A stretch of 37,361 nt of DNA, from IMG/VR virus record IMGVR_UViG_3300012211_000006, positions 1 to 37,361 of that record; one strand, written 5' to 3'. The stretch is from a virus. This document shows positions 968 to 24,703 of the stretch, in pieces. Below the pieces are notes generated by a model. It ran no database searches and was not told where the DNA came from. It saw only the letters and a program-made list of their open reading frames with translations. The position numbers and the translations under genes were made by a program. Each line of letters starts with the position of its first letter. Within the stretch, counting starts at the first letter, position 1.

Positions 968-1398
968 TTTATTTCCGCCAAGCTAACTTTGAAATTCATT
1001 TTGTTCCACCGTTTTGCAAATCGAGTTTTGGACATTTCCACCATTTCTTCGAACGTGAAAGTACCCTCGGCAAAATAGGTGCTGTTGCAAGCGCCGCGCG
1101 TATCGACCGAACGGTCCCAAAATGACAGGCACGTCCAACCGTTTTTGTGATGCAGTAGCGCCTCGCCTTCGACTTCACGCCCGTGCTCCCAGTGACCTCG
1201 CTTGTCATAACAACGGGGTTGCAACTTGCCGTCAATCTCCCAATCTTTCCACGGAAGGCTGTTTTCGACTTCACGGGTAACACGACCACCGTGTTCAGAC
1301 CAAAAGAAATGTCCAGCCTGATCCCAAGGTCCGAAGTAAAACATCCGCGGATTTACTTTGTTCATCAGCTCACCATAACAATAGGCAGAGGCTGCCAT
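964..1398 (-). CDS. Hypothetical protein rich in Trp/His/Gly; 5' end from a duplicated segment
   Basis: About 144 residues from the ATG at 1398 (MAASAYCYGELMNKVNPRMF); the frame also has a TTG start at 1413. The body has many aromatic and His residues (FYFGPWDQAGHFFWSEHGG, HHKNGWTCLSFWDRSVD) and looks like a small folded beta domain. I do not recognise it. The first residues are encoded by a 45 bp segment that is a near copy of the 3' end of the 2998-2213 gene. There the copy ends in TAA after MAASA; here the stop has become TAT and the frame continues. The true start is therefore uncertain. Confidence 0.7.
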   Translation of the reverse strand: MAASAYCYGELMNKVNPRMFYFGPWDQAGHFFWSEHGGRVTREVENSLPWKDWEIDGKLQPRCYDKRGHWEHGREVEGEALLHHKNGWTCLSFWDRSVDTRGACNSTYFAEGTFTFEEMVEMSKTRFAKRWNKMNFKVSLAEIK

Positions 1399-1426
1399 AG
1401 CTTTTTCTTTCAATGGTTTGAAAATG
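1382..1426. repeat. 45 bp direct repeat, copy 1
   Basis: Near-identical to 2214-2258 (about five mismatches over 45 bp), same orientation. On the minus strand it encodes FKPLKEKAMAASA. In copy 2 the same peptide, FKPLEEKAMAASA, ends the upstream protein. It suggests a past duplication that created the start region of the 1398-964 gene. Confidence 0.9.
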
Positions 1427-1460: not shown

Positions 1461-1530
1461 CCCACGAAATATCATCTATCTTTGAGAATAGATAATGTTC
1501 GAAGGCTTCACGCTAGGCGAAATCATCTCC

Positions 1531-1661
1531 CGATGGCTGTAACTCTAATCCCGACGCTCTACCACTGAGCTACCCGCGATCAAAACAGTCACCCTTCCCA
1601 ATTGACCGCTTTGATCGCGGGGCAGGATTTGAACCTGCGCCTTCGGTTTTATAAGCCAACG
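1531..1661 (-). tRNA. Candidate circularly permuted tRNA (3' half encoded before 5' half)
   Basis: On the minus strand the 3' half comes first: anticodon-stem 3' side ACCGA (1647-1643), short variable loop AGGC, T arm GCAGG-TTCAAAT-CCTGC (1638-1622), acceptor 3' strand CCCGCGA (1621-1615). After 35 nt comes the 5' half: acceptor TCGCGGG (1579-1573), TA, D arm GCTC-AGTGGTA-GAGC (1570-1556), G, then TCGGG (1554-1550). The acceptor halves match over 7 bp, extended to 12 bp by flanking TTTGA/TCAAA. The anticodon stem pairs TCGG with CCGA. Beyond the stem, leader CGTTGGC (1661-1655) pairs with trailer GCCATCG (1537-1531) with one mismatch. All segment lengths are canonical. No linear tRNA can be drawn from either half. 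The anticodon depends on an unknown join; U33 is available. No CCA is encoded. Confidence 0.55.
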
Positions 1662-1795
1662 TAGTGACCCAACCCATGCTCCTCCTAAAATCTTTGGGCG
1701 AAATCAATCTGAATTCTGTAAAGCTAAGTCCATCAATCTCATTACTACTGAATCTGGGCAACTTCGGTTCGTCACCGAAGAGCGCCCAAACTTGT

Positions 1796-2212: not shown

Positions 2213-2998
2213 TTAGGCAGAAGCTGCCATGGCTTTTTCTTCCAATGGTTTGAAAATATAGCTCAACAGGGCCTCTCCTATCTTCTTCTCCTTCACATCC
2301 ACCTCTTGTTCATTGGCCCTAGCACGAGCTTTCTTGATGGCCCTCGTTAACTTATCCAATCTGTCCAAGACCGCTGCCTTCTTCGCTGGCGTGATCATAG
2401 AGGACCATTCTTGCTCTTGCACCATGCCAACCGAGACATCTTCAAACAGCTTCTCCACTTGCGCCGGATGCTCCTTCGAAGCCGGCACCATCACCACCGG
2501 CTTGAACTCTTTCTTGGTTCTGTGTTTCCGAACCTCTGTCGCCTTGTAATACCCGAAACCTTTCTGTTCATCCGGCAAAAATCCCTTCGCAGGATCGAGC
2601 GTAGGAATAGACGTAATCAAAGTTCTCAACTCATCCATTCTGTGCTCCAGCCTCAGCAGAGACGTTGCTGGCACTTCTTTGAGAATCGTCTCCTCATCTT
2701 CCGTAATGACATCCGCCTTCGCAATCGTATTCGCAACATCTATCTGATGGGAAGCATCCAGCCCTTTTGCCAAGATGGGGCACAGCCAGTCTATTTCTTT
2801 CTTGACTGTAGTCTGAATGTCTGATTGCAATTCTGTCTCTGGAGCCGCCCCATCTGTAATCGGCTTGAATGTCACGATCTTCATCGAGAAAAGATGTTTC
2901 TTGTCGTCAAACGTTTTCTTCAACTCCGTTCTCGTTTTCCCAGCCTGATTTTCATAATTCTTCTCTACGGAAAGCAACTCATGCAACTTCGTAGGCAT
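2213..2998 (-). CDS. Conserved bacterial/phage protein (KLHELL...EVD...EALL family)
   Basis: 261 residues, start fixed by AAAAAGGAGAAG. The protein starts MPTKLHELLSVEKNYENQAG and has a layout I associate with a conserved family of unknown function (possibly DUF7873; recalled, not checked): KTRTELKKTF, SDIQTTVKKEI, PTLDPAKGF, EVRKHRTKKEFKPVV, KEHPAQVEKLFEDV, EWSSMITPAKKAAVLDRLDKL, ARARANEQEVD. It is soluble and highly helical with no nuclease or kinase motif. Its C-terminal 15 codons were duplicated downstream at 1382-1426. It sits in the block with vWA, J-domain/pseudokinase and PurA-like genes, so a shared role is plausible. Confidence 0.8.
   Translation of the reverse strand: MPTKLHELLSVEKNYENQAGKTRTELKKTFDDKKHLFSMKIVTFKPITDGAAPETELQSDIQTTVKKEIDWLCPILAKGLDASHQIDVANTIAKADVITEDEETILKEVPATSLLRLEHRMDELRTLITSIPTLDPAKGFLPDEQKGFGYYKATEVRKHRTKKEFKPVVMVPASKEHPAQVEKLFEDVSVGMVQEQEWSSMITPAKKAAVLDRLDKLTRAIKKARARANEQEVDVKEKKIGEALLSYIFKPLEEKAMAASA
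2214..2258. repeat. 45 bp direct repeat, copy 2
   Basis: Partner of 1382-1426. It covers the last codons and stop of the 2998-2213 gene. This copy is probably the parent, because it is in frame with a long conserved protein. Confidence 0.9.
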
Positions 2999-3525: not shown

Positions 3526-3969
3526 TTAGACTTCCATCAATTCCACTTCTTCCTGCTTCACTTCTACTACTTTCTCCCGAAAGTTAGGGTCAACGCTATC
3601 CAACCACTCCGCCAATCGTTCCAGGTTCCAATCTCCCCTTGTCATCACATGGTAATTAAACAAATGAACGAGCTCTAAAACTGCACACCCCTCCATATCG
3701 CTACGAAGCCCCCACTGCCCACTATCGCCCATCAACCTTTCTTCTTTGCAATCACAAGGCAATGAAAGCCCACTCTTATCCCACATCCACCAATATTGCG
3801 AAAGTGAACTCCCGTTCACCAAAGAGAAAGAATACAGGGAGAAGTACCTTTCATTATGTGCTGCTGCTATCATCCCCAGAGCACAACCACCACCTCTACC
3901 GTCATTCTGTTTTCCCATTACTGGACGAATTATTGTACTACCCAACAACATCGCTTCACTTGCTCTCAT
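3526..3969 (-). CDS. Conserved hypothetical protein (SEAMLLG...CALG family)
   Basis: 147 residues, ribosome site GAAGGAGGAG before the ATG. It starts MRASEAMLLGSTIIRP, then has a Gly/Cys segment (GRGGGCALGMIAAAH), a Trp/Cys central part (YWWMWDKSGLSLPCDCKEE) and a C-terminal helix ending in WNLERLAEWLDSVDP. The CxC and the earlier CALG resemble a small family of phage and bacterial proteins with a Cys pair and a 'HL...W-ER-A-W' tail, recalled not verified. It overlaps the end of the PurA-like gene by 14 bases, implying coupling. Confidence 0.75.
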   Translation of the reverse strand: MRASEAMLLGSTIIRPVMGKQNDGRGGGCALGMIAAAHNERYFSLYSFSLVNGSSLSQYWWMWDKSGLSLPCDCKEERLMGDSGQWGLRSDMEGCAVLELVHLFNYHVMTRGDWNLERLAEWLDSVDPNFREKVVEVKQEEVELMEV

Positions 3970-5137
3970 AGACTCCTCCTTCTTGAATTTGAACTTCTAC
4001 TCGTTTATCTATCTCTCTGTCTTTTGCTGTCGGTCCAAAGCCATGAATCAAAACAGGCACTTCCTTGAGAAGCTTCTGAGGTGAATCCATATATTTGTCC
4101 AGATGATTCAAAGCTACCGCATCTACACCATCACAGCACCGAAGGGCAAACTGAAAAGCCGCTCTGTCGAAAAAACCGGTTCTAAACTTCCCCTGAAAAC
4201 CGGAGCCACTGTTATGAAACTCTGGAGAAATTCTTAAGAAGTAATCGTCTTCATCTTTCAAAGGGCCATCTCCGTGCCTGGTAAAATAACTCCTAATCAC
4301 TCCGAGCCTACAAACTGAACCAACATATCCACACTCTTTCAACAACGTAAAAGCATTCTCAAACGTAGTATTCGTCCAACTATTAAATCCTTCTTCTCCA
4401 TACTTCTCATCCAGGAGAACTCCCTGTGCTCCCTCGAAGATCGTACAATCCGTTCCTTCTAACAAAGAAGCTAGCTCCAGAGAATCTACTATCGAAACTT
4501 TCTTTGCCCATTTCTGATAACAATCAGCGACCCAATCTATTGCCGCTGGCTCTTCTAGCACTCTCATTTCTTCCCGAATCTTTTCATCTCCTACTATGCC
4601 TTCTACCGCCTTTCTGGAAACTTGTTGCATAAATCTGAGCTTCATTTCCGATAGCCATTCCAGCTTCAAATCTCCTGCAAACAACACCCGCATTCCATAG
4701 CGAATGTGATCTGCCCTCGTCTGCCCCACTCCCTGTCCACAACTTGTATGCACCCCCAAAGCTAGCTGCTCTATACGATTCACCGCTTGTTGGAAGGGAG
4801 TTACGATTAACGCTTCTGCGTCGATTGTAGCCCTCTGGAACGCGTCAGAAACGCCAATTATATGAAGATGTTTCTCTTCCTCCACCATCGAAATTGGATT
4901 CACCAGCATGAATCGTGACAAGTGGGACTTAACACCTGTCACGAACATGCCGCTACCAAACTGAGAGAACGTATGGTGCCTGCCGTCGGAAGTAACTACG
5001 TTGTGAGCTGCTTGTGGTCCACCGTTATAACGAACCACCAGACCAGCTCCTTTCTCCCGAACGAGGAAGTCTACTGTTGCCCCCTTCCCTTCGTCACCAT
5101 ACGCCAAACCTGCTACTACATACACCTGCGTTGTCAC
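3956..5137 (-). CDS. Adenylosuccinate synthetase-like enzyme (PurA/PurZ superfamily)
   Basis: 393 residues from a GTG that overlaps the vWA gene's stop (GTGA). Residues 12-20 (AYGDEGKGA) form the GTP/IMP loop with the general-base Asp15. GGPQAAHNV at 39-47 carries the His equivalent to E. coli His41. FEGAQGVLLDE, a TRHGDGP motif and a late NHLDK are all family features. The family joins aspartate to a purine monophosphate using GTP. The sequence is divergent from housekeeping PurA (PQAAH in place of HNAGH; about 35 residues shorter) and resembles a second bacterial paralogue group. Phage PurZ, which makes the diaminopurine precursor from dGMP, is reported to lack the Asp; here it is kept, so dGMP use is not assured. 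Neither DatZ nor MazZ is in the window. Confidence 0.88.
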   Translation of the reverse strand: MTTQVYVVAGLAYGDEGKGATVDFLVREKGAGLVVRYNGGPQAAHNVVTSDGRHHTFSQFGSGMFVTGVKSHLSRFMLVNPISMVEEEKHLHIIGVSDAFQRATIDAEALIVTPFQQAVNRIEQLALGVHTSCGQGVGQTRADHIRYGMRVLFAGDLKLEWLSEMKLRFMQQVSRKAVEGIVGDEKIREEMRVLEEPAAIDWVADCYQKWAKKVSIVDSLELASLLEGTDCTIFEGAQGVLLDEKYGEEGFNSWTNTTFENAFTLLKECGYVGSVCRLGVIRSYFTRHGDGPLKDEDDYFLRISPEFHNSGSGFQGKFRTGFFDRAAFQFALRCCDGVDAVALNHLDKYMDSPQKLLKEVPVLIHGFGPTAKDREIDKRVEVQIQEGGVYESK

Positions 5138-10518: not shown

Positions 10519-10767
10519 CTAAAACCCAAAATAAGGAACTCCCTTAAACTCTTCCCAATCACTCTCTACACCAAAAGCCTCTATAACAAGTATATCTTGA
10601 GAACCAATTTCTATCTGCAAAGTCTTCTGCACTAATGGACTTACCAAATGTACCCAAGGGCCATGCATTCCATCATCCATAAAATCCAATTTCAAATACG
10701 CTTCCGGTAGCCAATCAGGTAACCTAACCCTCTCTATTCTTTTTTCTACTACTTCATCTATCGTCAT
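10519..10767 (-). CDS. Small hypothetical protein
   Basis: 82 residues overlapping the end of the SbcDC gene by 14 bases, with GAGGATGACAG upstream of the ATG. The sequence has an N-terminal helix (IDEVVEKRIERVRLPDWLPE), then beta-type segments (AYLKLDFMDDGMHGPWVHLV, LQIEIGSQDILVIEAFG). I do not recognise it. Coupling to sbcDC suggests a recombination-related or merely co-expressed role. Confidence 0.65.
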   Translation of the reverse strand: MTIDEVVEKRIERVRLPDWLPEAYLKLDFMDDGMHGPWVHLVSPLVQKTLQIEIGSQDILVIEAFGVESDWEEFKGVPYFGF

Positions 10768-13540
10768 CTGTCATCCTCGAAATCCCATTCTCTTTTACAA
10801 TCAAGACTCTTCTGGAATCCTCCAGCTCTGAAAGGATCTCCCCATTATGTGTCACACACAATATACAAGAGAACTTCTTAGTCACTTCTCGCAGCCCTCT
10901 AGCAAACTGCCTTGCGGATACAGGGTCTAGGCCGTCTCCGGGTTCATCCAAAATGAGCAAATTCGTCTTAGGTGCCACACTCCTTACCGCAAATGAAGTA
11001 ATCAAGCTAGCCATCTTCAATTCACCAGCGGACTGATCTTGGATATTTTCACCACCATGAGCATTGATCACTTGAGCATCCAAACTGCCTTCTTCATCCA
11101 CCACAAAATGTACTTGAATTTCTTTCTGGGCAAAAAGCTCTGCGTAGTAGTCCGCCTCTACATTCAACTGAGGCACTAATTGCTGATTTAGAAAAGCCGG
11201 AAGACCACCGCGCGAAAACACTTGTTCTGCGTAAAGCAAAACCCCCAACCAAGTCCTAAGCTTTATCTCCTTCTGCTTCTGCACTTGCATCTGTTCCAAA
11301 ATCCTCTCCCGCTTAACTTTCAACTGAAACAGCAAAGTCTTCTGCTTTTCAAAGTGCTCCAAATGAATCTTCGTTTCTCTCTTATCTTCTCTAGCCGCTG
11401 CAACTTTAGCTTCCAAAAACCGATTTCTACTCCAACGAACCAACTCCGAAGGAAGGTCCTGATCCACACTCGGCTCTTTCTTCTTTAGATCTTTCAGCTT
11501 CTCTTCTAACTGTTCTATAGATTTAATCAATTTCTGTCGCTCTCTCTTGACATGATCCCCTGTAATTTCCTGGCGGCAGACTGGGCAAATCCCCTTTAAC
11601 GAACTAAAGTCATCCAAACTATCTCGTAGCTGTACAAGCTGATTATGATAAGAAATCTTCTCAATCTCCCAATTCTTATGCCCCGCTCTCTGCTCTTCCA
11701 GCTGCTGCTCTATTTCAGTTCTACGTTTTTCTGCTTTTATCTCCCACTGCTTAAGTTCCTCCTCTGCCCGCTGTAAAACCGTAGCTGACGCCCTATAGGA
11801 TTTCTCAGGATTCGCTCCTACACCCAACGTTTTCTGAGCCTGAAGGAAAAGGAACTGAAGATTCTCTTTTTCGCTATAAAGCCTCTGTAGCGTCTCCTGT
11901 ACGGATGCTAATGAGCCTTCCAGAGACGTTTTCTCCTCTTTTACAAGTTTTCCAGCTCGCTCGAACCTTTCATTGTTCTGAAGCCGATTCAGAAAAGTCT
12001 TCCGCTCCGATTCTGTTCCCGTCAACATTAAATGTGTGCGCCCCTGATCTACGTAGATTGCATTGGATAAAGTCTCCCACGTGTAACCTACTGACTGCTC
12101 AATCAGCCGCTGTGTTGCTTCTGGTCTGTTCCCACTCTCAACCGGATCTCCATTGATAAAAAGCCGCAACTTCCTAGGCTGCCTACTCCTTTTGACAAAA
12201 ACTTTTCTTCCCTGCCCATCCTCCAGCCAAACCCCTACAAAGGATTTCTCATTCTTCTTGGTTCCTCTCCGTATCCAATGGTCATGTTTCTGCCCCTTAA
12301 ACGTTGTACCAAATAAAGCTACTGCTATAACGGCCAAGCTGCCCGATTTACCTGCGCCGTTTGATCTATTCCAGTCTTTATTTCTTCCTGCTACCACGCA
12401 AAGACCGGGGGTGAGTTCCCAGTCCAACTTCTTGAAACTCAAAAAGTTTTCTGCTGAATACTTTCTAAACCGTAACTCCCCACCCTCTCTAACCAGCCCA
12501 CCTGCTTGCTTCACTTGCTCCACTAGGTAACCCAAAACTCTTTTCTTATGAGGCTGCAACTCTCCGGGAAGCGTCCTCTTCAAATAGATTGCCAGCTTCT
12601 TCTGATCTGGATATTCCGCTTTTATCCCATCACTACTGAGTTCCCTTTCCATGATTTCTGGAATAACCAAAATCTCTGCACCAACGTACTTCTTCTCCGC
12701 CTTTTCTTTTGCTAAACGGAGAGCCCCCCCTATGTGCTTAGCATCTGCACATGGCACTTTTATTCTAATTCTAGCTCCTTCCCAAGTCTCCGGGGCCGAC
12801 TCCTCAAATCCTGGCCATGCAGGATCGTACCAACCTGGAATCTTTGATCTTATCTGCTGCAGCTTCTCTGTTTTCGTATCAAAGAGCAAATATCCTTTTC
12901 GCTGATTTGCTTCGCCCCAATCCGTAGCAAATGGGCTACCTACGTACCAGACGTTCTTTCCGACTCTATGCTGCAAGTGAATATGGCCTCCGATGCAGAT
13001 TCTGTATCTCTCGCAATATAAATCTTCAATAGATAGCTTCGAATCTGACTTTGCATGCACATTGTACTGTGCTCGTTTGACATCGCTATGAAAGACAAGA
13101 ATTGTCTTCTCACCTCTCCCAATTCTTGCCAAATCATACGCTTCCCTTCGCAGTAGGGTTTCACTAGCTCTAAAAGGCAACACTCTAAGGCTCCATCCAT
13201 CCGCCAACAAAATTCTAGCTGGGTCATCATAGGCTTCCGCTCCCGCTTTTCTCAGCACTGGAAACCAATTTTGTTTATCCACGTACATCCCCGTTCTGTC
13301 ATGATTTCCAAGGCAGATCACTACTTTGAGACCACCCTCTCTCAACTGGTCAATCGCTCTCAACGCGAAATTTGTTACCCTCACATCCACCGGATTATAA
13401 ACTTGCTTGACATCTCCACAGTGCACTAACAGCTGAAATCCCAGCTTTTTCTTCAAAGCCAGGATCTCAGCTATTACTTTTTGGCAGATCGGAATATTCT
13501 CCAACTCTATCTGCCAATCCGATGAGAACAAGAGACGCAT
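10754..13540 (-). CDS. Fused SbcD-SbcC (Mre11-Rad50) nuclease-ATPase
   Basis: 928 residues from MRLLFSSDWQIE, start chosen because the ATG lies next to the upstream stop at 13542; a longer frame to 13672 would overlap the upstream gene. The first ~300 residues are Mre11/SbcD: SSDWQ (the usual His after Asp is missing), HCGDV at 40-44, GNHD at 78-81, VFHSD and GGHIHLQ. The rest is SbcC/Rad50: a degenerate Walker A region with NGAGKSG, long coiled coils around one CPVC zinc hook, a QSAGELKMASL signature, Walker B LLILDEPGDGLD and a switch His (CVTHNGE). T4 encodes the two as gp47 and gp46. Here one chain carries both, fixing 1:1 stoichiometry. The role is end resection in recombination-dependent replication. 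Confidence 0.93.
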   Translation of the reverse strand: MRLLFSSDWQIELENIPICQKVIAEILALKKKLGFQLLVHCGDVKQVYNPVDVRVTNFALRAIDQLREGGLKVVICLGNHDRTGMYVDKQNWFPVLRKAGAEAYDDPARILLADGWSLRVLPFRASETLLRREAYDLARIGRGEKTILVFHSDVKRAQYNVHAKSDSKLSIEDLYCERYRICIGGHIHLQHRVGKNVWYVGSPFATDWGEANQRKGYLLFDTKTEKLQQIRSKIPGWYDPAWPGFEESAPETWEGARIRIKVPCADAKHIGGALRLAKEKAEKKYVGAEILVIPEIMERELSSDGIKAEYPDQKKLAIYLKRTLPGELQPHKKRVLGYLVEQVKQAGGLVREGGELRFRKYSAENFLSFKKLDWELTPGLCVVAGRNKDWNRSNGAGKSGSLAVIAVALFGTTFKGQKHDHWIRRGTKKNEKSFVGVWLEDGQGRKVFVKRSRQPRKLRLFINGDPVESGNRPEATQRLIEQSVGYTWETLSNAIYVDQGRTHLMLTGTESERKTFLNRLQNNERFERAGKLVKEEKTSLEGSLASVQETLQRLYSEKENLQFLFLQAQKTLGVGANPEKSYRASATVLQRAEEELKQWEIKAEKRRTEIEQQLEEQRAGHKNWEIEKISYHNQLVQLRDSLDDFSSLKGICPVCRQEITGDHVKRERQKLIKSIEQLEEKLKDLKKKEPSVDQDLPSELVRWSRNRFLEAKVAAAREDKRETKIHLEHFEKQKTLLFQLKVKRERILEQMQVQKQKEIKLRTWLGVLLYAEQVFSRGGLPAFLNQQLVPQLNVEADYYAELFAQKEIQVHFVVDEEGSLDAQVINAHGGENIQDQSAGELKMASLITSFAVRSVAPKTNLLILDEPGDGLDPVSARQFARGLREVTKKFSCILCVTHNGEILSELEDSRRVLIVKENGISRMTDDDR

Positions 13541-13541
13541 G

Positions 13542-14234
13542 CTATCCCAGCTTCTCCATCTTCCTTCGTACCGTATAAAACATTTTTCTCTTTTCTTCTT
13601 TGGTGATTCGCCCTTCAAACTTAGGCTCGTTCCAAACCTCCAGATAGAACCTTTCCTTGCCAAGCACTGCAACCAGAAACGGATCTCTCAGAGGCACCTT
13701 TTTCACTTCCTCTATAAACAACTCAACCATGGGAATCTCTCTCTTCAACGTAACCGCCTTATTCAAAACAAACTCGGGAATTGGCTTCTCATATCTACCA
13801 ATCTGTGTCCAACCCCACTCGACTCTTACAGGACTTAGAGATCTTTTCTTTGGGGACTCGACATCTTCACCATCCTCGTAAGCATCCTTGACCTTCTTCG
13901 GCCTATCGTCATCATCCTCTTCATCGTCATCCTCTTCGTCCTCGTCATCCATCATAACTCTAGCTGCCCTACCATCTCCTTCCAAAATTACCTCCCTCTG
14001 CAACTTCTCTTCCAACACCTGCCTCTGATATCTTCTAATCTCATCCTCATCCAAAGTTTCCATCTGCAGCTTTGTCAGAGCTTCCCGCAAAGGCATACCC
14101 AACATCTGCTCTGCCAAGAGAGTATAACCCAAAACTGATTTCGCATCTCTCGCTAGCAACATCAGATCTTTCTGCATACTCAGCTCTTCCCCTGCTGGAA
14201 CTGCTCTTGCCAACGTGTCTATCGTTAACTTCAT
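13542..14234 (-). CDS. Acidic-linker protein; paralogue of the 9533-8997 product
   Basis: 230 residues, ribosome site AAAGGAGATACACT. The N-terminal ~100 residues are helical, followed by a strongly acidic stretch of Asp/Glu (about 110-125), a basic/Ser patch (PKKRSLSPVRVEW) and a C-terminal domain (IPEFVLNKAVTL, DPFLVAVLGKERFYLEVW, NEPKFEGR) shared with the 9533-8997 protein. It lies between the clamp loader and SbcDC genes, overlapping the former by 4 bases. An acidic linker plus a small folded domain would suit a replication accessory protein. Function is unknown. Confidence 0.75.
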   Translation of the reverse strand: MKLTIDTLARAVPAGEELSMQKDLMLLARDAKSVLGYTLLAEQMLGMPLREALTKLQMETLDEDEIRRYQRQVLEEKLQREVILEGDGRAARVMMDDEDEEDDDEEDDDDRPKKVKDAYEDGEDVESPKKRSLSPVRVEWGWTQIGRYEKPIPEFVLNKAVTLKREIPMVELFIEEVKKVPLRDPFLVAVLGKERFYLEVWNEPKFEGRITKEEKRKMFYTVRRKMEKLG

Positions 14235-18336: not shown

Positions 18337-19230
18337 TCAAACTGCATCTGCCGCCATCTGTACTTTCAAACTCTTCTCAAACTTTCTATTCTCAGCGCAC
18401 CAATTTTCCAGAAACTCATCCGGAGACTCTCCCATATAATCCTTCACCAACGTACCCATTCTAAAGCCAGCTTTACCTTCCGCTTTGAGTGGAATCTTCC
18501 AATCCAACTTGGGCCAATGCTTCTTTACATAGAGTAACGTATCCTTCTCAAGAATCTGAACTCCTTGCTTAAAAGCTTCCGGCAAATTCTTCAAAGCTAC
18601 AAACGCTGCCAGAGAGTCATGGATTTCCATGCACATGCGCTGCCACAGATGATACGTTACTTTCTTCAACTCCATTACTGCCAACGAAATCAACAGCAAC
18701 TGATGTGCTGTCCCCTGAATTGGGCTATTCACAGATTGATTGCGCCAAAAAGTCGTTCTATCTTCCTCCACCGCCTGAGAAATTTCTCGCCTGAATCCGA
18801 ACAAAGTCTCCACATATCCGTTCGTCTGTGCGAATTCTACCTGAGCGTCTAACCATTTCTTCACGCCAGAAAACCTAGCGAAATAACGATTGTAGAGTCT
18901 CTCCACATCTTCCATTGTCATCGTAAACTTTTCGTGCCGCTCTGCTGCCTCTGTCTTCAACTTCGCATAGAGAGTCTTCGGTACCAATCCATAGATAATT
19001 CCAAAATGCAAACCCTTGACCGCTGTTCTCGTCTCTCTATCCGTCTTAATCTTAGCCAAGGATATATTCGTTAACTCGTGCCCAACCGCCGCATGTAAAT
19101 CTTCCCCCGATAGGATCAGCTCCGTCAAGAGCTTATCTCCAGACATCTGAGCCAAAACCCGTATCTCCAACTGTGCGTGATCTAAGGACAAAAACACATC
19201 CGCGTCAGCGTATTTTTCTGCCAAGGTCAT
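18337..19230 (-). CDS. Family A DNA polymerase, C-terminal part (palm and fingers)
   Basis: 297 residues starting MTLAEKYADADVFLSLDH. Motif A is VFLSLDHAQLEIRVLAQMSGD (residues ~12-32; catalytic Asp in SLD). The O-helix motif B is RTAVKGLHFGIIYG, with the usual Arg, Lys, Phe and Tyr-Gly. Motif C is CMEIHDSL, with HDS in place of the common HDE. It lacks the exonuclease and thumb, which are encoded by the separate gene at 21287-19380. The two must associate to give a polymerase. The break falls between the TGRLRS/NLQN region and motif A, with a 66-codon frame occupying the gap. This is either a genuine split polymerase or a recent disruption. Confidence 0.92.
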   Translation of the reverse strand: MTLAEKYADADVFLSLDHAQLEIRVLAQMSGDKLLTELILSGEDLHAAVGHELTNISLAKIKTDRETRTAVKGLHFGIIYGLVPKTLYAKLKTEAAERHEKFTMTMEDVERLYNRYFARFSGVKKWLDAQVEFAQTNGYVETLFGFRREISQAVEEDRTTFWRNQSVNSPIQGTAHQLLLISLAVMELKKVTYHLWQRMCMEIHDSLAAFVALKNLPEAFKQGVQILEKDTLLYVKKHWPKLDWKIPLKAEGKAGFRMGTLVKDYMGESPDEFLENWCAENRKFEKSLKVQMAADAV

Positions 19231-19405
19231 CTGCTTTCATCTCCGAATAAATATCAAATTTTAGTTGCACTAGAGCATCCGATGCCCCTTTGCAAGCGGT
19301 AGCCATTACTGTCACCCACTGCAGATAGATATCCAGCGACCTTAGAAGCAATAGCAAATTCCTATCCCAGTCTTTCTTCTTAGTTTTCTTTTTCTTTTTC
19401 GGCAT
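19205..19405 (-). CDS. 66-residue basic ORF bridging the split polymerase
   Basis: The product starts MPKKKKKTKKKDWDRNLLLL and continues with a hydrophobic/helical segment and an amphipathic tail. It overlaps the end of the polymerase N-terminal gene and the start of the C-terminal gene, so all three frames are interlocked. The Lys-rich start could bind DNA. It may be an insertion that split an ancestral polymerase gene or a linker subunit. It could also be non-coding; coding evidence is only its overlap pattern and length. Confidence 0.5.
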   Translation of the reverse strand: MPKKKKKTKKKDWDRNLLLLLRSLDIYLQWVTVMATACKGASDALVQLKFDIYSEMKADDLGRKIR

Positions 19406-21287
19406 TCTTTTTCCTCTCCAACCAATCTCTATAAATGCTTCTCCAACGAAGATCTGAAACGAGTAGATTTTCTATTGCCGGATCTCCATGAACGTTCTGC
19501 AAGTTCACTATACCGCGTGTTTTGTCCCTCGATCCACCAGAGCGAAGCCTACCCGTAATCGTCCCGGTTAGCCACCAAGACGTTTTCAATCTGCCTTCAT
19601 GCAACTCTGCTGATTTCCTAAATCCCTTCATATAGGTCGACTCTTTCTTCGATAGCTTTCTGAACACATCAACCAAACCAGGAAACGGATGGTAGGAGCT
19701 CAGCATTTGCATCGTATCATGATTGGTAGTTCTTTGCCCATGTTCCTTCCTCCACCATTCATCCAAATGCTCTCCCAACTGTAACTTATCATAGACCATC
19801 TCCGCTACCTGTCCCGGAGCGTTGGGATTGAACTTCGGATTCCCTGCCATCTCCTTCAGTTTATTCTTCAGTTTTTCCAGCTTTACCGGAATCCATTTCT
19901 GCAAGAGTTCATCGTGCTTGGAGTCAAACAGTGGACCATTGTTCTCCATCCTAGCCAAAGGGTATGCCGCTCGGATGAACACCTGCAACAGCTCCCAATT
20001 CACCTTACCAGCATTATCCATTTCAATCCTCTTGGTCAGATCGCAATCCGCCCCGTTATACCGAACTATAATCTCAGGAGGCACTTTCAGAAATGAAGCC
20101 AAACCCGTTTTCTTATCTCGGTACGGTTCTAAAATCTCCTTATATCCAGCAAACTCCCTAAACCGTACATCCGCTATCGCCTCCAAACCAAACGCTTTTC
20201 TCCCAGAGAATCTCAGATACTCAGAATATTGAGTATCATGATCATATCCTCTGACTTTGATCCCAAGCAGCTGCTCCAACTTACTCACATCGTAAGAGCC
20301 ATGCTGAAATGCTTTTTTGATTGAGCCATCTTCCAAGATCTTCTTCAGCAAAGCCAATTTTATCTTCACTGCCTCTTTCGACTGCTTGATAGCCGAATGC
20401 TCCAAAAACACTCCTCTAGCTTCCCCAACTTTCCAAGAGAATCCAACATAGACGATTACATTTCTATCCCCGTCCCAATCGTCTTCAATATCTACTACGA
20501 TTCTCTCTCCTTTCGAAGCCGCCGCTAGAAGAGGCTCCGTTATCTCCACATCGAGTTGCTTAGCCGTAACTGATTTATAATCCCGTGCCTCTATATAGGC
20601 AAACTTCCCCCCATCTTCCTTCGCTTTTTTTACCACGATTTCCAAGGCTTCTCGAAATTCTGCCAATTTTGACTTCGGACCACCTCTCAAGAAATAGCTA
20701 GGATGATACGTGCAAACCACCCAAGCATTCAGCCGCTTGGAGTAAAAAGTCTTCTGATCTTTGCGATACTCTCCTTTCAGAAGGGCTTTCATCGCCACTT
20801 TACCCAACACCAAGTGCACTTTTGCCTTACCTTGATTTATTTTGATTGCTTCTTCTGTATAAATAGAACAGCAGTGAATCTCCTCTTTACTAGGCTCTCT
20901 TGGAATCAGCTGATCCAACTCATTCACATCTACCGTCCAACATCTTACAACGTTCTGCAAACCACAATCCTCCCGTTTCAAGCCAACCTTTGCTGCCTCC
21001 GCCCACAATAACTTTCCCGCTGGGCCAACTAGCTCCATTCTTTTTATGTTCTCCAACTCCCCCGGATTCTGAGCCCATATCATAATTTTCTTCCCAACTA
21101 CCTTTTCCAAGTTCATAACCTTATGAAGGCCATGAACTTTGTTTAACGGACAGAACTCACAGCCGCGACCTTTCTTTGGCTTCGCCGAAGCTATCCGCTG
21201 CCTTTTCTCCCTTGGCTTTCCTACTTTAGCAGGGGAAATCTTATCTACCGACTGACCAAAATCTAAAGCTGAGCCAAACTTAATCAT
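19380..21287 (-). CDS. Family A DNA polymerase N-terminal part with Fe-S uracil-DNA-glycosylase-like and 3'-5' exonuclease domains
   Basis: 635 residues; ATGA overlap with the cupin gene. Residues ~40-210 resemble family 4 uracil-DNA glycosylases: C43-x2-C46, NPGELE, VGPAGKLLW, NVVRCW (C116), C139/140 and TYHPSYFLRG. The four cysteine positions match the 4Fe-4S ligands. Residues ~245-420 are a DEDD 3'-5' exonuclease (VVDIED, FQHGSYDVSKL, YNGADCDLTKR). The end has the thumb and TGTITGRLRSGG...NLQN motif and then stops, before motif A. SPO1-type phage polymerases are also reported to carry a UDG-like domain. Here the catalytic palm is encoded separately at 19230-18337. The UDG domain could recognise uracil ahead of the fork or be structural. 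Confidence 0.9.
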   Translation of the reverse strand: MIKFGSALDFGQSVDKISPAKVGKPREKRQRIASAKPKKGRGCEFCPLNKVHGLHKVMNLEKVVGKKIMIWAQNPGELENIKRMELVGPAGKLLWAEAAKVGLKREDCGLQNVVRCWTVDVNELDQLIPREPSKEEIHCCSIYTEEAIKINQGKAKVHLVLGKVAMKALLKGEYRKDQKTFYSKRLNAWVVCTYHPSYFLRGGPKSKLAEFREALEIVVKKAKEDGGKFAYIEARDYKSVTAKQLDVEITEPLLAAASKGERIVVDIEDDWDGDRNVIVYVGFSWKVGEARGVFLEHSAIKQSKEAVKIKLALLKKILEDGSIKKAFQHGSYDVSKLEQLLGIKVRGYDHDTQYSEYLRFSGRKAFGLEAIADVRFREFAGYKEILEPYRDKKTGLASFLKVPPEIIVRYNGADCDLTKRIEMDNAGKVNWELLQVFIRAAYPLARMENNGPLFDSKHDELLQKWIPVKLEKLKNKLKEMAGNPKFNPNAPGQVAEMVYDKLQLGEHLDEWWRKEHGQRTTNHDTMQMLSSYHPFPGLVDVFRKLSKKESTYMKGFRKSAELHEGRLKTSWWLTGTITGRLRSGGSRDKTRGIVNLQNVHGDPAIENLLVSDLRWRSIYRDWLERKKNAEKEKEN

Positions 21288-23650: not shown

Positions 23651-24703
23651 TCAAAGAGCTGACCCCCAACTAACGTGGGTACTTTTCTCCATTCTAGGTT
23701 TATACCAGTCATTCATATGGCTAAATATCCAGCCATTGAAAATGAAACGATACGCCAATGATCTTCTCAGCAAATCAAAGTCCCAACCCAATTTTTCTAC
23801 GTAACTTTGCACTGACTTCAAAGCTTCTGGAGCTAACGTAGTGATTGAATTCTTACTTGTACTTTGCTTCAATCCTCCTGTTAATGAAACGTGAATCGTG
23901 CCCAGAGATCCTCTATCCGGATCCATCGAGATAATCGCTCCGTAACTTGCTGTCCGTGACCATGAACTGCTATCAACGCTATACCAAGGGTACGCATATG
24001 TCAGAGCTATCGAAGTAAGACCAAAGCCGTGCATTTTCACATGATAGCCTTCTATGGCCCTAAAAACTTCGTCCAAGCACCTTCTCGCCCCTTTGTACGT
24101 CATCCTCTTACCTACACCAGGAGACATACCTATTCTCTTGTAACCAAGATCCAGATATTTCTTCAGCCAATCTATCGAAGCATCGCCATGATAAATTGGC
24201 ACTGGATTCAACCCTTTTTCTCTTAACACTTTCGTCATCTTCCAAACTATCTCTGCCTTCGGAGCGTAATCGAAGGTGACGTAGAAATCCCAATCCTTTT
24301 TTCTTTTCTTGCAGAAGTGAACATACTTGTCCACCGTATCTAGCCTCAACTTATCTATATCTGTCACATCTTTCCGCTTCACCAGAAATTGCTGAAACGA
24401 AAAAGCTCCGGAATCCATCATAATATGATTACAGTGCTCCACATCCACTTCATAAGCTTCTAAGGCTCTAGGAGACCAATAAATTGCCTCTGGGTCTAAG
24501 TATACATAAGAAAAACACCTATATCTCACTCCGCTACATTTCAGAAACTCTTCTTCCAACTCTCTCGTATGAACAACCGTATGAGACAAATAGATCCTCG
24601 GACTAGCATCTGCTTGAGGGGCAATCTTTGGAACTATCCCTTCGGCTAGCTTCAGCTTTTCTGTTTTTCTTGCCTTCCACCGGCCAGATGCACTACCTAG
24701 CAT
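23651..24703 (-). CDS. dpdA-like: DpdA-like DNA transglycosylase (TGT family)
   Basis: 350 residues, ribosome site TTGGAGAAGAA. MMDSGAFSFQQFL at 95-107 carries the DSGAFS active-site motif of DpdA/TGT enzymes; WDFYVTFDYAPKAEIVWK and IGMSPGVGKRMTYKGARR are barrel segments. HGFGLTSIALTYAYPWYSVDSSSW matches a DpdA-typical region with a likely catalytic or binding Asp. DpdA exchanges guanine in DNA for a 7-deazaguanine such as preQ0. Phages with it are resistant to many restriction enzymes. The folE gene follows within 6 bases, supporting the pathway. It could alternatively act on tRNA, but the sequence is closer to DNA-modifying DpdA as I recall it. Confidence 0.85.
   Translation of the reverse strand: MLGSASGRWKARKTEKLKLAEGIVPKIAPQADASPRIYLSHTVVHTRELEEEFLKCSGVRYRCFSYVYLDPEAIYWSPRALEAYEVDVEHCNHIMMDSGAFSFQQFLVKRKDVTDIDKLRLDTVDKYVHFCKKRKKDWDFYVTFDYAPKAEIVWKMTKVLREKGLNPVPIYHGDASIDWLKKYLDLGYKRIGMSPGVGKRMTYKGARRCLDEVFRAIEGYHVKMHGFGLTSIALTYAYPWYSVDSSSWSRTASYGAIISMDPDRGSLGTIHVSLTGGLKQSTSKNSITTLAPEALKSVQSYVEKLGWDFDLLRRSLAYRFIFNGWIFSHMNDWYKPRMEKSTHVSWGSAL

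What the first reader, a model, noticed from the sequence alone, without database searches (positions are those of the whole stretch)
1531..1661. Candidate circularly permuted tRNA gene in a phage
The 3' half (T arm, acceptor 3' strand) is encoded upstream of the 5' half (acceptor 5' strand, D arm) with 35 nt between. The acceptor strands pair over 7 bp (12 with flanks), the anticodon stem joins the halves through TCGG/CCGA, and the outer ends can pair further (CGTTGGC with GCCATCG). Permuted tRNAs are known from a few algae and archaea, which process them with splicing endonuclease that bacteria lack. A phage example would need another route, for example a permuted self-splicing intron whose halves lie in the structured flanks, or use as a nicked or circular RNA.
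Basis: partly seen in the sequence, partly recalled or inferred. Interest (0 to 1): 0.88.

Follow-up and report, generated by a model that had tools for sequence, protein, structure and literature searches.

The report
Phage RNA shaped like scrambled tRNA
This phage carries a gene for a non-coding RNA that folds like a transfer RNA with its halves swapped, and the same kind of RNA sits directly beside one uncharacterised protein gene (DUF7873) in nearly every phage and bacterium examined that has that gene, which points to an overlooked RNA-protein machine related in design to the Ro60/Y RNA system.

Summary
On the minus strand, 1531-1661, a T arm and acceptor 3' strand precede an acceptor 5' strand and D arm, and the halves pair at the anticodon position. 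It is not a tRNA awaiting splicing. The 35-nt spacer extends the acceptor into a 19-bp closed hairpin, no CCA is encoded, and no bulge-helix-bulge splice motif is present. Rfam's weak best match is YrlA, the bacterial Y RNA that mimics a circularly permuted tRNA (38.4 bits, cut-off 69).

The window RNA belongs to a large family defined by its neighbour, DUF7873 (PF25283), here at 2213-2998. A permuted tRNA-like RNA lies just downstream of DUF7873, on the same strand, in 79 of 80 viral and 78 of 80 bacterial loci fetched by protein alone, and in all 14 DUF7873-positive genomes of a blind sample of 197 actinomycetes. The anticodon stem, not used for selection, covaries strongly. Most viral copies encode NCCA at the exact tRNA 3' end. 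YUNAR motifs recur every 6 nt. Most of these phage records encode no Ro60.

I propose a Y-RNA-like ribonucleoprotein with DUF7873 as partner. Binding and function are inferred, not shown. No DUF7873 paper was found in the library searched.

The parts
2213..2998 (-). DUF7873 (PF25283) gene, 261 aa, proposed protein partner of the RNA
   Evidence: Pfam E 1.1e-65; always next to the RNA family
1690..1795 (-). upstream RNA domain, aligned with relatives (closing strands TTTGGG...CGCCCAA, YUNAR-type motifs); ends approximate
   Evidence: alignment A6; motif map
1655..1661 (-). outer stem, 5' strand (CGTTGGC)
   Evidence: sequence; outer duplex test
1647..1654 (-). internal loop, left side (TTATAAAA)
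1643..1646 (-). anticodon-stem 3' strand (CCGA)
   Evidence: covariation at this stem
1622..1638 (-). T arm
1615..1621 (-). acceptor stem, 3' strand (CCCGCGA)
1580..1614 (-). spacer that extends the acceptor by 12 pairs into a closed hairpin; no CCA
1573..1579 (-). acceptor stem, 5' strand (TCGCGGG)
1556..1570 (-). D arm
1551..1554 (-). anticodon-stem 5' strand (TCGG)
1538..1550 (-). internal loop, right side, conserved motif (GATTAGAGTTACA)
1531..1537 (-). outer stem, 3' strand (GCCATCG)
1524..1670 (-). whole tRNA-like core as modelled
   Evidence: RF02553 match 1530-1659; R1 match (a training sequence of R1)
1382..1425 (.). direct repeat copy of the 3' end of DUF7873 (other copy 2214-2257)

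Best explanation
The feature is the core of a non-coding RNA gene. The RNA folds into a tRNA-like module with circularly permuted strand order, closed at the anticodon end by an asymmetric internal loop and a long basal stem. It belongs to a family encoded next to, and most likely bound by, the protein DUF7873. I propose that it works like a bacterial Y RNA. The tRNA-like head (canonical T and D arms, acceptor stem, often with CCA) would be recognised by general tRNA-binding or tRNA-processing factors. The basal stem, internal loop and hexamer-phased YUNAR motifs would hold DUF7873, perhaps several copies. The result would be an RNP that tethers or diverts enzymes acting on tRNA. Shown by computation: the RNA structure (covariation), the fixed genomic pairing with DUF7873 across phages and several bacterial phyla, the CCA encoding in most phage copies, the 6-nt phasing, and the absence of Ro60 from most records. 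Inferred: transcription, DUF7873 binding, the client enzymes, and the benefit to the phage.
For: DUF7873 loci were fetched by protein alone, and a permuted tRNA-like RNA lies downstream on the same strand in 79/80 viral and 78/80 bacterial loci. Sample of 197 actinomycete genomes: 14 have DUF7873 and all 14 have the RNA adjacent. Cultured phages of Rhizobium, Klebsiella, Arthrobacter, Gordonia, Vibrio and Pseudanabaena have it. Covariation score 0.892 against 0.226 shuffled and at most 0.18 slid. In viral copies, halves of one locus match each other better than halves of other loci: anticodon stem 3.81 against 1.96 pairs, outer duplex -18.8 against -10.8 kcal/mol. 184 of 185 copies have no overlapping ordinary tRNA. 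NCCA in 57 of 68 distinct viral copies. YUNAR spacing of 6 nt: 89 observed against 13.3 shuffled (viral), 67 against 4.7 (bacterial). In Herpetosiphon aurantiacus the RNA pair lies 1.8 Mb from DUF7873, so it is not merely a cis element of that mRNA. Closest Rfam family YrlA.
Against: No expression, binding or phenotype data. DUF7873 has no recognised fold (best Foldseek E about 0.01-0.05 with TM 0.1-0.2), so RNA binding is inferred from linkage only. The window copy lacks CCA and has a closed acceptor, so whatever CCA does is not essential in every member. Adjacency could reflect co-inheritance of two functionally separate genes. The first tandem copy in bacteria does not show the anticodon-stem pairing in my fixed register (1.93 against 1.87). 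The window has few 6-nt-phased motifs itself.
Confidence: 0.72

Rival explanations
1. A genuine circularly permuted tRNA gene: the halves are rejoined at the anticodon loop by some ligase, then the spacer is removed, giving an ordinary decoding tRNA.
For: Order of halves and paired acceptor and anticodon stems; NCCA in most viral relatives; in some copies joining ..AUYAR to AA.. would make a plausible 7-nt anticodon loop.
Against: No BHB motif; the junction motif is shared by bodies with unrelated acceptor stems; RtcB in only 6 of 53 phage records; the window spacer is a stable hairpin without CCA.
Confidence: 0.07
2. A divergent YrlA that is simply a Ro60-binding Y RNA; DUF7873 is an unrelated neighbour.
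For: Permuted tRNA-like head and full-length RF02553 match; Ro60-linked RNAs are also found by model R1.
Against: Below the Rfam cut-off; no TROVE in 47 of 53 phage records or 8 of 13 bacterial genomes; near-constant pairing with DUF7873, not Ro60; in Lentzea (G002) a Ro60-linked RNA and a DUF7873-linked RNA coexist at separate loci.
Confidence: 0.12
3. A cis-acting 3' element of the DUF7873 mRNA (autoregulation or transcript protection), not a separate RNA.
For: Short, same-strand spacing downstream of the gene.
Against: Unlinked in Herpetosiphon aurantiacus; an unrelated-looking ORF lies between gene and RNA in the window; elaborate tRNA-like fold with CCA.
Confidence: 0.08
4. Chance remnants of tandem or degraded tRNA genes.
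For: Tandem identical tRNAs do match the models.
Against: 184 of 185 copies overlap no tRNA; covariation of the anticodon stem; constant gene context.
Confidence: 0.01

Closest known systems
YrlA, bacterial Y RNA (Rfam RF02553; PDB 6CU1)
   Same: tRNA-like module in circularly permuted order (T arm before D arm), with a basal stem at the anticodon end; weak but full-length Rfam match
   Different: Linked to DUF7873 instead of Ro60; below the Rfam cut-off; NCCA at the acceptor end in most phage copies; extra upstream domain with hexamer-phased motifs; often two copies in bacteria
Circularly permuted tRNA genes of algae and archaea (PMC3978253)
   Same: 3' half encoded before 5' half with a short intervening sequence
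   Different: No BHB motif at the junction; conserved non-anticodon motif; no evidence of rejoining
Permuted (two-piece) tmRNA (RF04321)
   Same: T arm and CCA upstream of the acceptor 5' strand; spacer between the acceptor strands
   Different: Canonical D arm with a paired D stem and GG in the loop; G3-U70 in only 7 of 84; no tmRNA match for the window
Ro60/Rsr (TROVE, PF05731) ribonucleoproteins
   Same: A protein gene paired with a permuted tRNA-like RNA
   Different: DUF7873 gave no Pfam TROVE match and no TROVE chain appeared in the structure searches; absence from those lists is not proof of a different fold

Membership tests
YrlA / bacterial Y RNA | tRNA-like module with permuted strand order | tested here: met
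YrlA / bacterial Y RNA | reaches the Rfam RF02553 gathering score (69 bits) | tested here: not met
   38.4 bits for the window; 27-39 bits for relatives
YrlA / bacterial Y RNA | encoded with a Ro60/Rsr (TROVE) gene | tested here: inconclusive
   none in the 37-kb window record, which may be a fragment; none in 47 of 53 related phage records, including 4 of 5 complete named genomes
YrlA / bacterial Y RNA | basal stem binds Ro60 | not testable with these tools
   needs a binding assay
circularly permuted tRNA gene | 3' half encoded upstream of 5' half; acceptor and anticodon stems pair | tested here: met
circularly permuted tRNA gene | BHB splice motif at the junction | tested here: not met
   window negative; 1 of 69 viral, 0 of 36 bacterial second copies
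circularly permuted tRNA gene | joined, aminoacylated tRNA product | not testable with these tools
   needs RNA sequencing
permuted tmRNA | G3-U70 alanine identity | tested here: not met
   7 of 84 sequences; the window has G3-C70
permuted tmRNA | match to RF04321 or other tmRNA models | tested here: not met
   no match at E<=10 in the window region
permuted group I intron-exon | group I intron core in the flanks | tested here: inconclusive
   no Rfam match, but a split, permuted core could be missed; the flanks align with the upstream domain of DUF7873-linked RNAs instead
TROVE / Ro60 protein (for DUF7873) | Ro60 HEAT-repeat and vWA fold | tested here: inconclusive
   no match in Pfam or structure searches

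The most novel reading that the evidence does not exclude
The CCA-encoding members are cut between the acceptor strands by RNase P and tRNA 3' processing into two-piece, CCA-ended tRNA mimics, and DUF7873 assembles on the 6-nt-phased YUNAR repeats at about 6 nt per subunit. Together they would form a third class of natural tRNA-mimic RNP, beside tmRNA-SmpB and Y RNA-Ro60, shared by phages and bacteria.
Probability: 0.25. Interest if true: 0.93.

Novelty: new variant of a known kind. Interest (0 to 1): 0.8.

Why it matters
It proposes a partner for a widespread protein of unknown function and describes an unannotated RNA family that occurs in phages, Actinomycetota, Cyanobacteriota, Myxococcota, Planctomycetota, Chloroflexota and others. 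Bacterial permuted tRNA mimics are known as partners of Ro60; here the same RNA architecture recurs beside a different protein, often in genomes without Ro60. Cultured phages (Gordonia GodonK and Ronaldo, Arthrobacter Mimi, Rhizobium TM16) and tractable bacteria carry the pair, so what a tRNA mimic is for becomes directly testable. It also corrects annotations: these RNAs are now unlabelled, overlapped by small predicted ORFs, or called suppressor tRNA.

Tried and rejected
Ordinary tRNA, tmRNA and Rfam at curated thresholds: no hits. Chance tandem tRNAs: rejected, though both RF02553 and my model R1 give false positives on tandem identical tRNAs. DNA similarity: only tRNA-like short matches or nothing. 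Single-sequence protein search of viral contigs: nothing; the alignment query worked. DUF7873 in NCBIfam, PADLOC and PDB sequences: nothing useful. Foldseek and VIA-align: no significant match; Cas7 chains top one list at E 0.012 with TM 0.12, and Pur-alpha and 3kdq appear for the second model; I treat these as noise. A conserved operon partner other than the RNA: none seen, RtcB in 1 and Band_7 in 2 of 101 neighbouring proteins. RtcB as a general ligase: 6 of 53 phage records. BHB motif: rejected. Promoter and terminator scan of the window: promoters no better than shuffles. Literature on DUF7873: none in the held library; the primary 2014 YrlA survey was not held, so some of these RNAs may already be in its lists.

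Full report
Observation. The described elements are all present, on the minus strand. In RNA order they are an outer strand CGUUGGC, an anticodon-stem strand CCGA, a T arm, the acceptor 3' strand CCCGCGA, a 35-nt spacer, the acceptor 5' strand UCGCGGG, U8, a canonical D arm, UCGG and GCCAUCG. The spacer pairs with itself for 12 further pairs, so the acceptor of this copy is a 19-bp hairpin. The 147-nt core folds with z -4.8. ARAGORN and Rfam at curated cut-offs find nothing.

First identification. With relaxed thresholds Rfam matches the whole core to YrlA, the bacterial Y RNA (38.4 bits, E 1.2e-6, cut-off 69). A bacterial Y RNA is published as a circularly permuted mimic of tRNA (PMC11472068; PMC8394870). 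The match is weak, and the model also rings in control genomes such as E. coli and B. subtilis, where tandem tRNA genes are the likely cause, so I looked for relatives by another route.

The neighbour. A gene 0.55 kb upstream encodes DUF7873 (PF25283, E 1.1e-65). In Rhizobium, Klebsiella and Arthrobacter phages found through that protein, the gap downstream of DUF7873 holds the same arrangement. I then fetched 80 viral and 80 bacterial loci by the protein alone. A strict scanner finds the permuted module downstream on the same strand in 62 and 68 of them, against 8 and 10 hits elsewhere on the plus strand and 2 and 11 on the minus strand. A covariance model built from 84 copies recovers all but three of the rest. 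Of these three, one contig ends about 100 nt after the gene (L067), and two are Herpetosiphon; in H. aurantiacus the RNA pair lies 1.8 Mb away from DUF7873. One recovered viral hit, L072, is weak (21.7 bits). In a sample of 197 actinomycete genomes drawn by the tool, 14 have DUF7873 and all 14 have the RNA beside it; one of the 14 is the centre genome, already known to me. Gordonia, Vibrio and Pseudanabaena phages that were not used to build the model also have it.

Structure. On 84 aligned copies, 94.3% of cells form standard pairs, with a covariation score of 0.892 against 0.226 in shuffles and at most 0.18 in slid versions. The acceptor, T and D stems were selection criteria, so the fair test is the anticodon stem: 78% paired, with two-sided changes at all five pairs. 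In viral copies, halves of one locus match each other better than re-matched halves, for the anticodon stem (3.81 against 1.96 pairs) and the outer duplex (-18.8 against -10.8 kcal/mol). In bacteria a second copy often follows about 145 nt downstream; the first of the two does not pass the anticodon-stem test in this register. 184 of 185 copies overlap no ordinary tRNA gene.

Acceptor end. 57 of 68 distinct viral copies encode NCCA exactly after the seventh acceptor base, where about 1 in 64 is expected by chance. Position 1-72 is G-C in 155 of 193 copies. Bacterial copies encode CCA less often; the few ordinary tRNA genes sampled from the same actinomycete loci also mostly lack it (3 of 12 have it), a small sample. 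A few copies, the window among them, instead close the acceptor into a long hairpin without CCA.

Anticodon position and flanks. The two halves meet at an asymmetric internal loop whose right side reads roughly AUYARNYURA in copies with unrelated bodies, so it does not behave like an identity-matched anticodon. There is no BHB motif. Around and upstream of the module, YUNAR motifs recur at 6-nt spacing far above shuffles (89 against 13.3 viral, 67 against 4.7 bacterial). The window shares the upstream domain of its relatives, though with few phased motifs of its own.

Relation to Ro60. Ro60-linked permuted RNAs are also found by the model and sit beside TROVE genes in the same or other genomes. 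Eight of 13 DUF7873 bacterial genomes and 47 of 53 DUF7873 phage records lack a TROVE match, with the caution that virus records may be fragments. DUF7873 is predicted with high confidence (pLDDT 92.7 and 93.2) but matches no solved fold significantly.

Conclusion. This is a DUF7873-linked, Y-RNA-like tRNA mimic. Structure and linkage are shown by computation. Transcription, binding, stoichiometry and function are inference. The likely role is a scaffold or decoy acting on tRNA-binding or RNA-processing enzymes, by analogy with Ro60/YrlA, where the tRNA-like head is reported to bind PNPase and to be modified by DusA and TruB (PMC8394870), and where a competitive inhibitor of a tRNA nuclease has been suggested (PMC7790460). 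I score the family as a new variant of a known kind because the head architecture is YrlA-like while the partner gene, CCA end and flanking domain differ. Novelty is limited by what I could search: the held literature has no paper on DUF7873, but the main YrlA survey was not available.

Noticed in passing
window 1382-1425 and 2214-2257: 44-nt direct repeat (93%) of the 3' end of DUF7873 flanks the segment with the 134-aa ORF and the RNA, suggesting a past insertion or recombination.
   Followed up: partly
L004 4042-4121 (Klebsiella phage FBKp24): A deposited tRNA-Sup-TTA overlaps a permuted tRNA-like RNA and is probably a misannotation; a second permuted copy with a Leu-type D arm lies at 4209-4268.
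   Followed up: partly
L007 2301-2606 (Xanthomonas phage Rb1): Unannotated permuted tmRNA in a phage, 103.4 bits to RF04321.
   Followed up: no
L173 2210-2485 and L151: Herpetosiphon aurantiacus keeps the RNA pair 1.8 Mb away from its DUF7873 gene.
   Followed up: partly
L169 2090-2210: Myxococcus has a further permuted tRNA-like RNA (64.9 bits) away from DUF7873, in a genome with no TROVE match; partner unknown.
   Followed up: no
L095: A Lokiarchaeota MAG contig carries DUF7873 and the RNA; could be a phage or a binning error.
   Followed up: no
window 3956-5137 and 23651-24703: The phage encodes a PurZ-like adenylosuccinate synthetase and a queuine tRNA-ribosyltransferase-like protein, two possible routes to modified DNA bases.
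   Followed up: no
window 10754-13672: SbcD-like and SbcC-like regions in one 972-aa ORF.
   Followed up: no
window 18337-21287: DNA polymerase A split over two ORFs, the first fused to a uracil-DNA glycosylase-like domain.
   Followed up: no
Rfam RF02553 model; L170, L171, L174: The YrlA model rings on tandem identical tRNA genes, so its hits need a tRNA check.
   Followed up: yes
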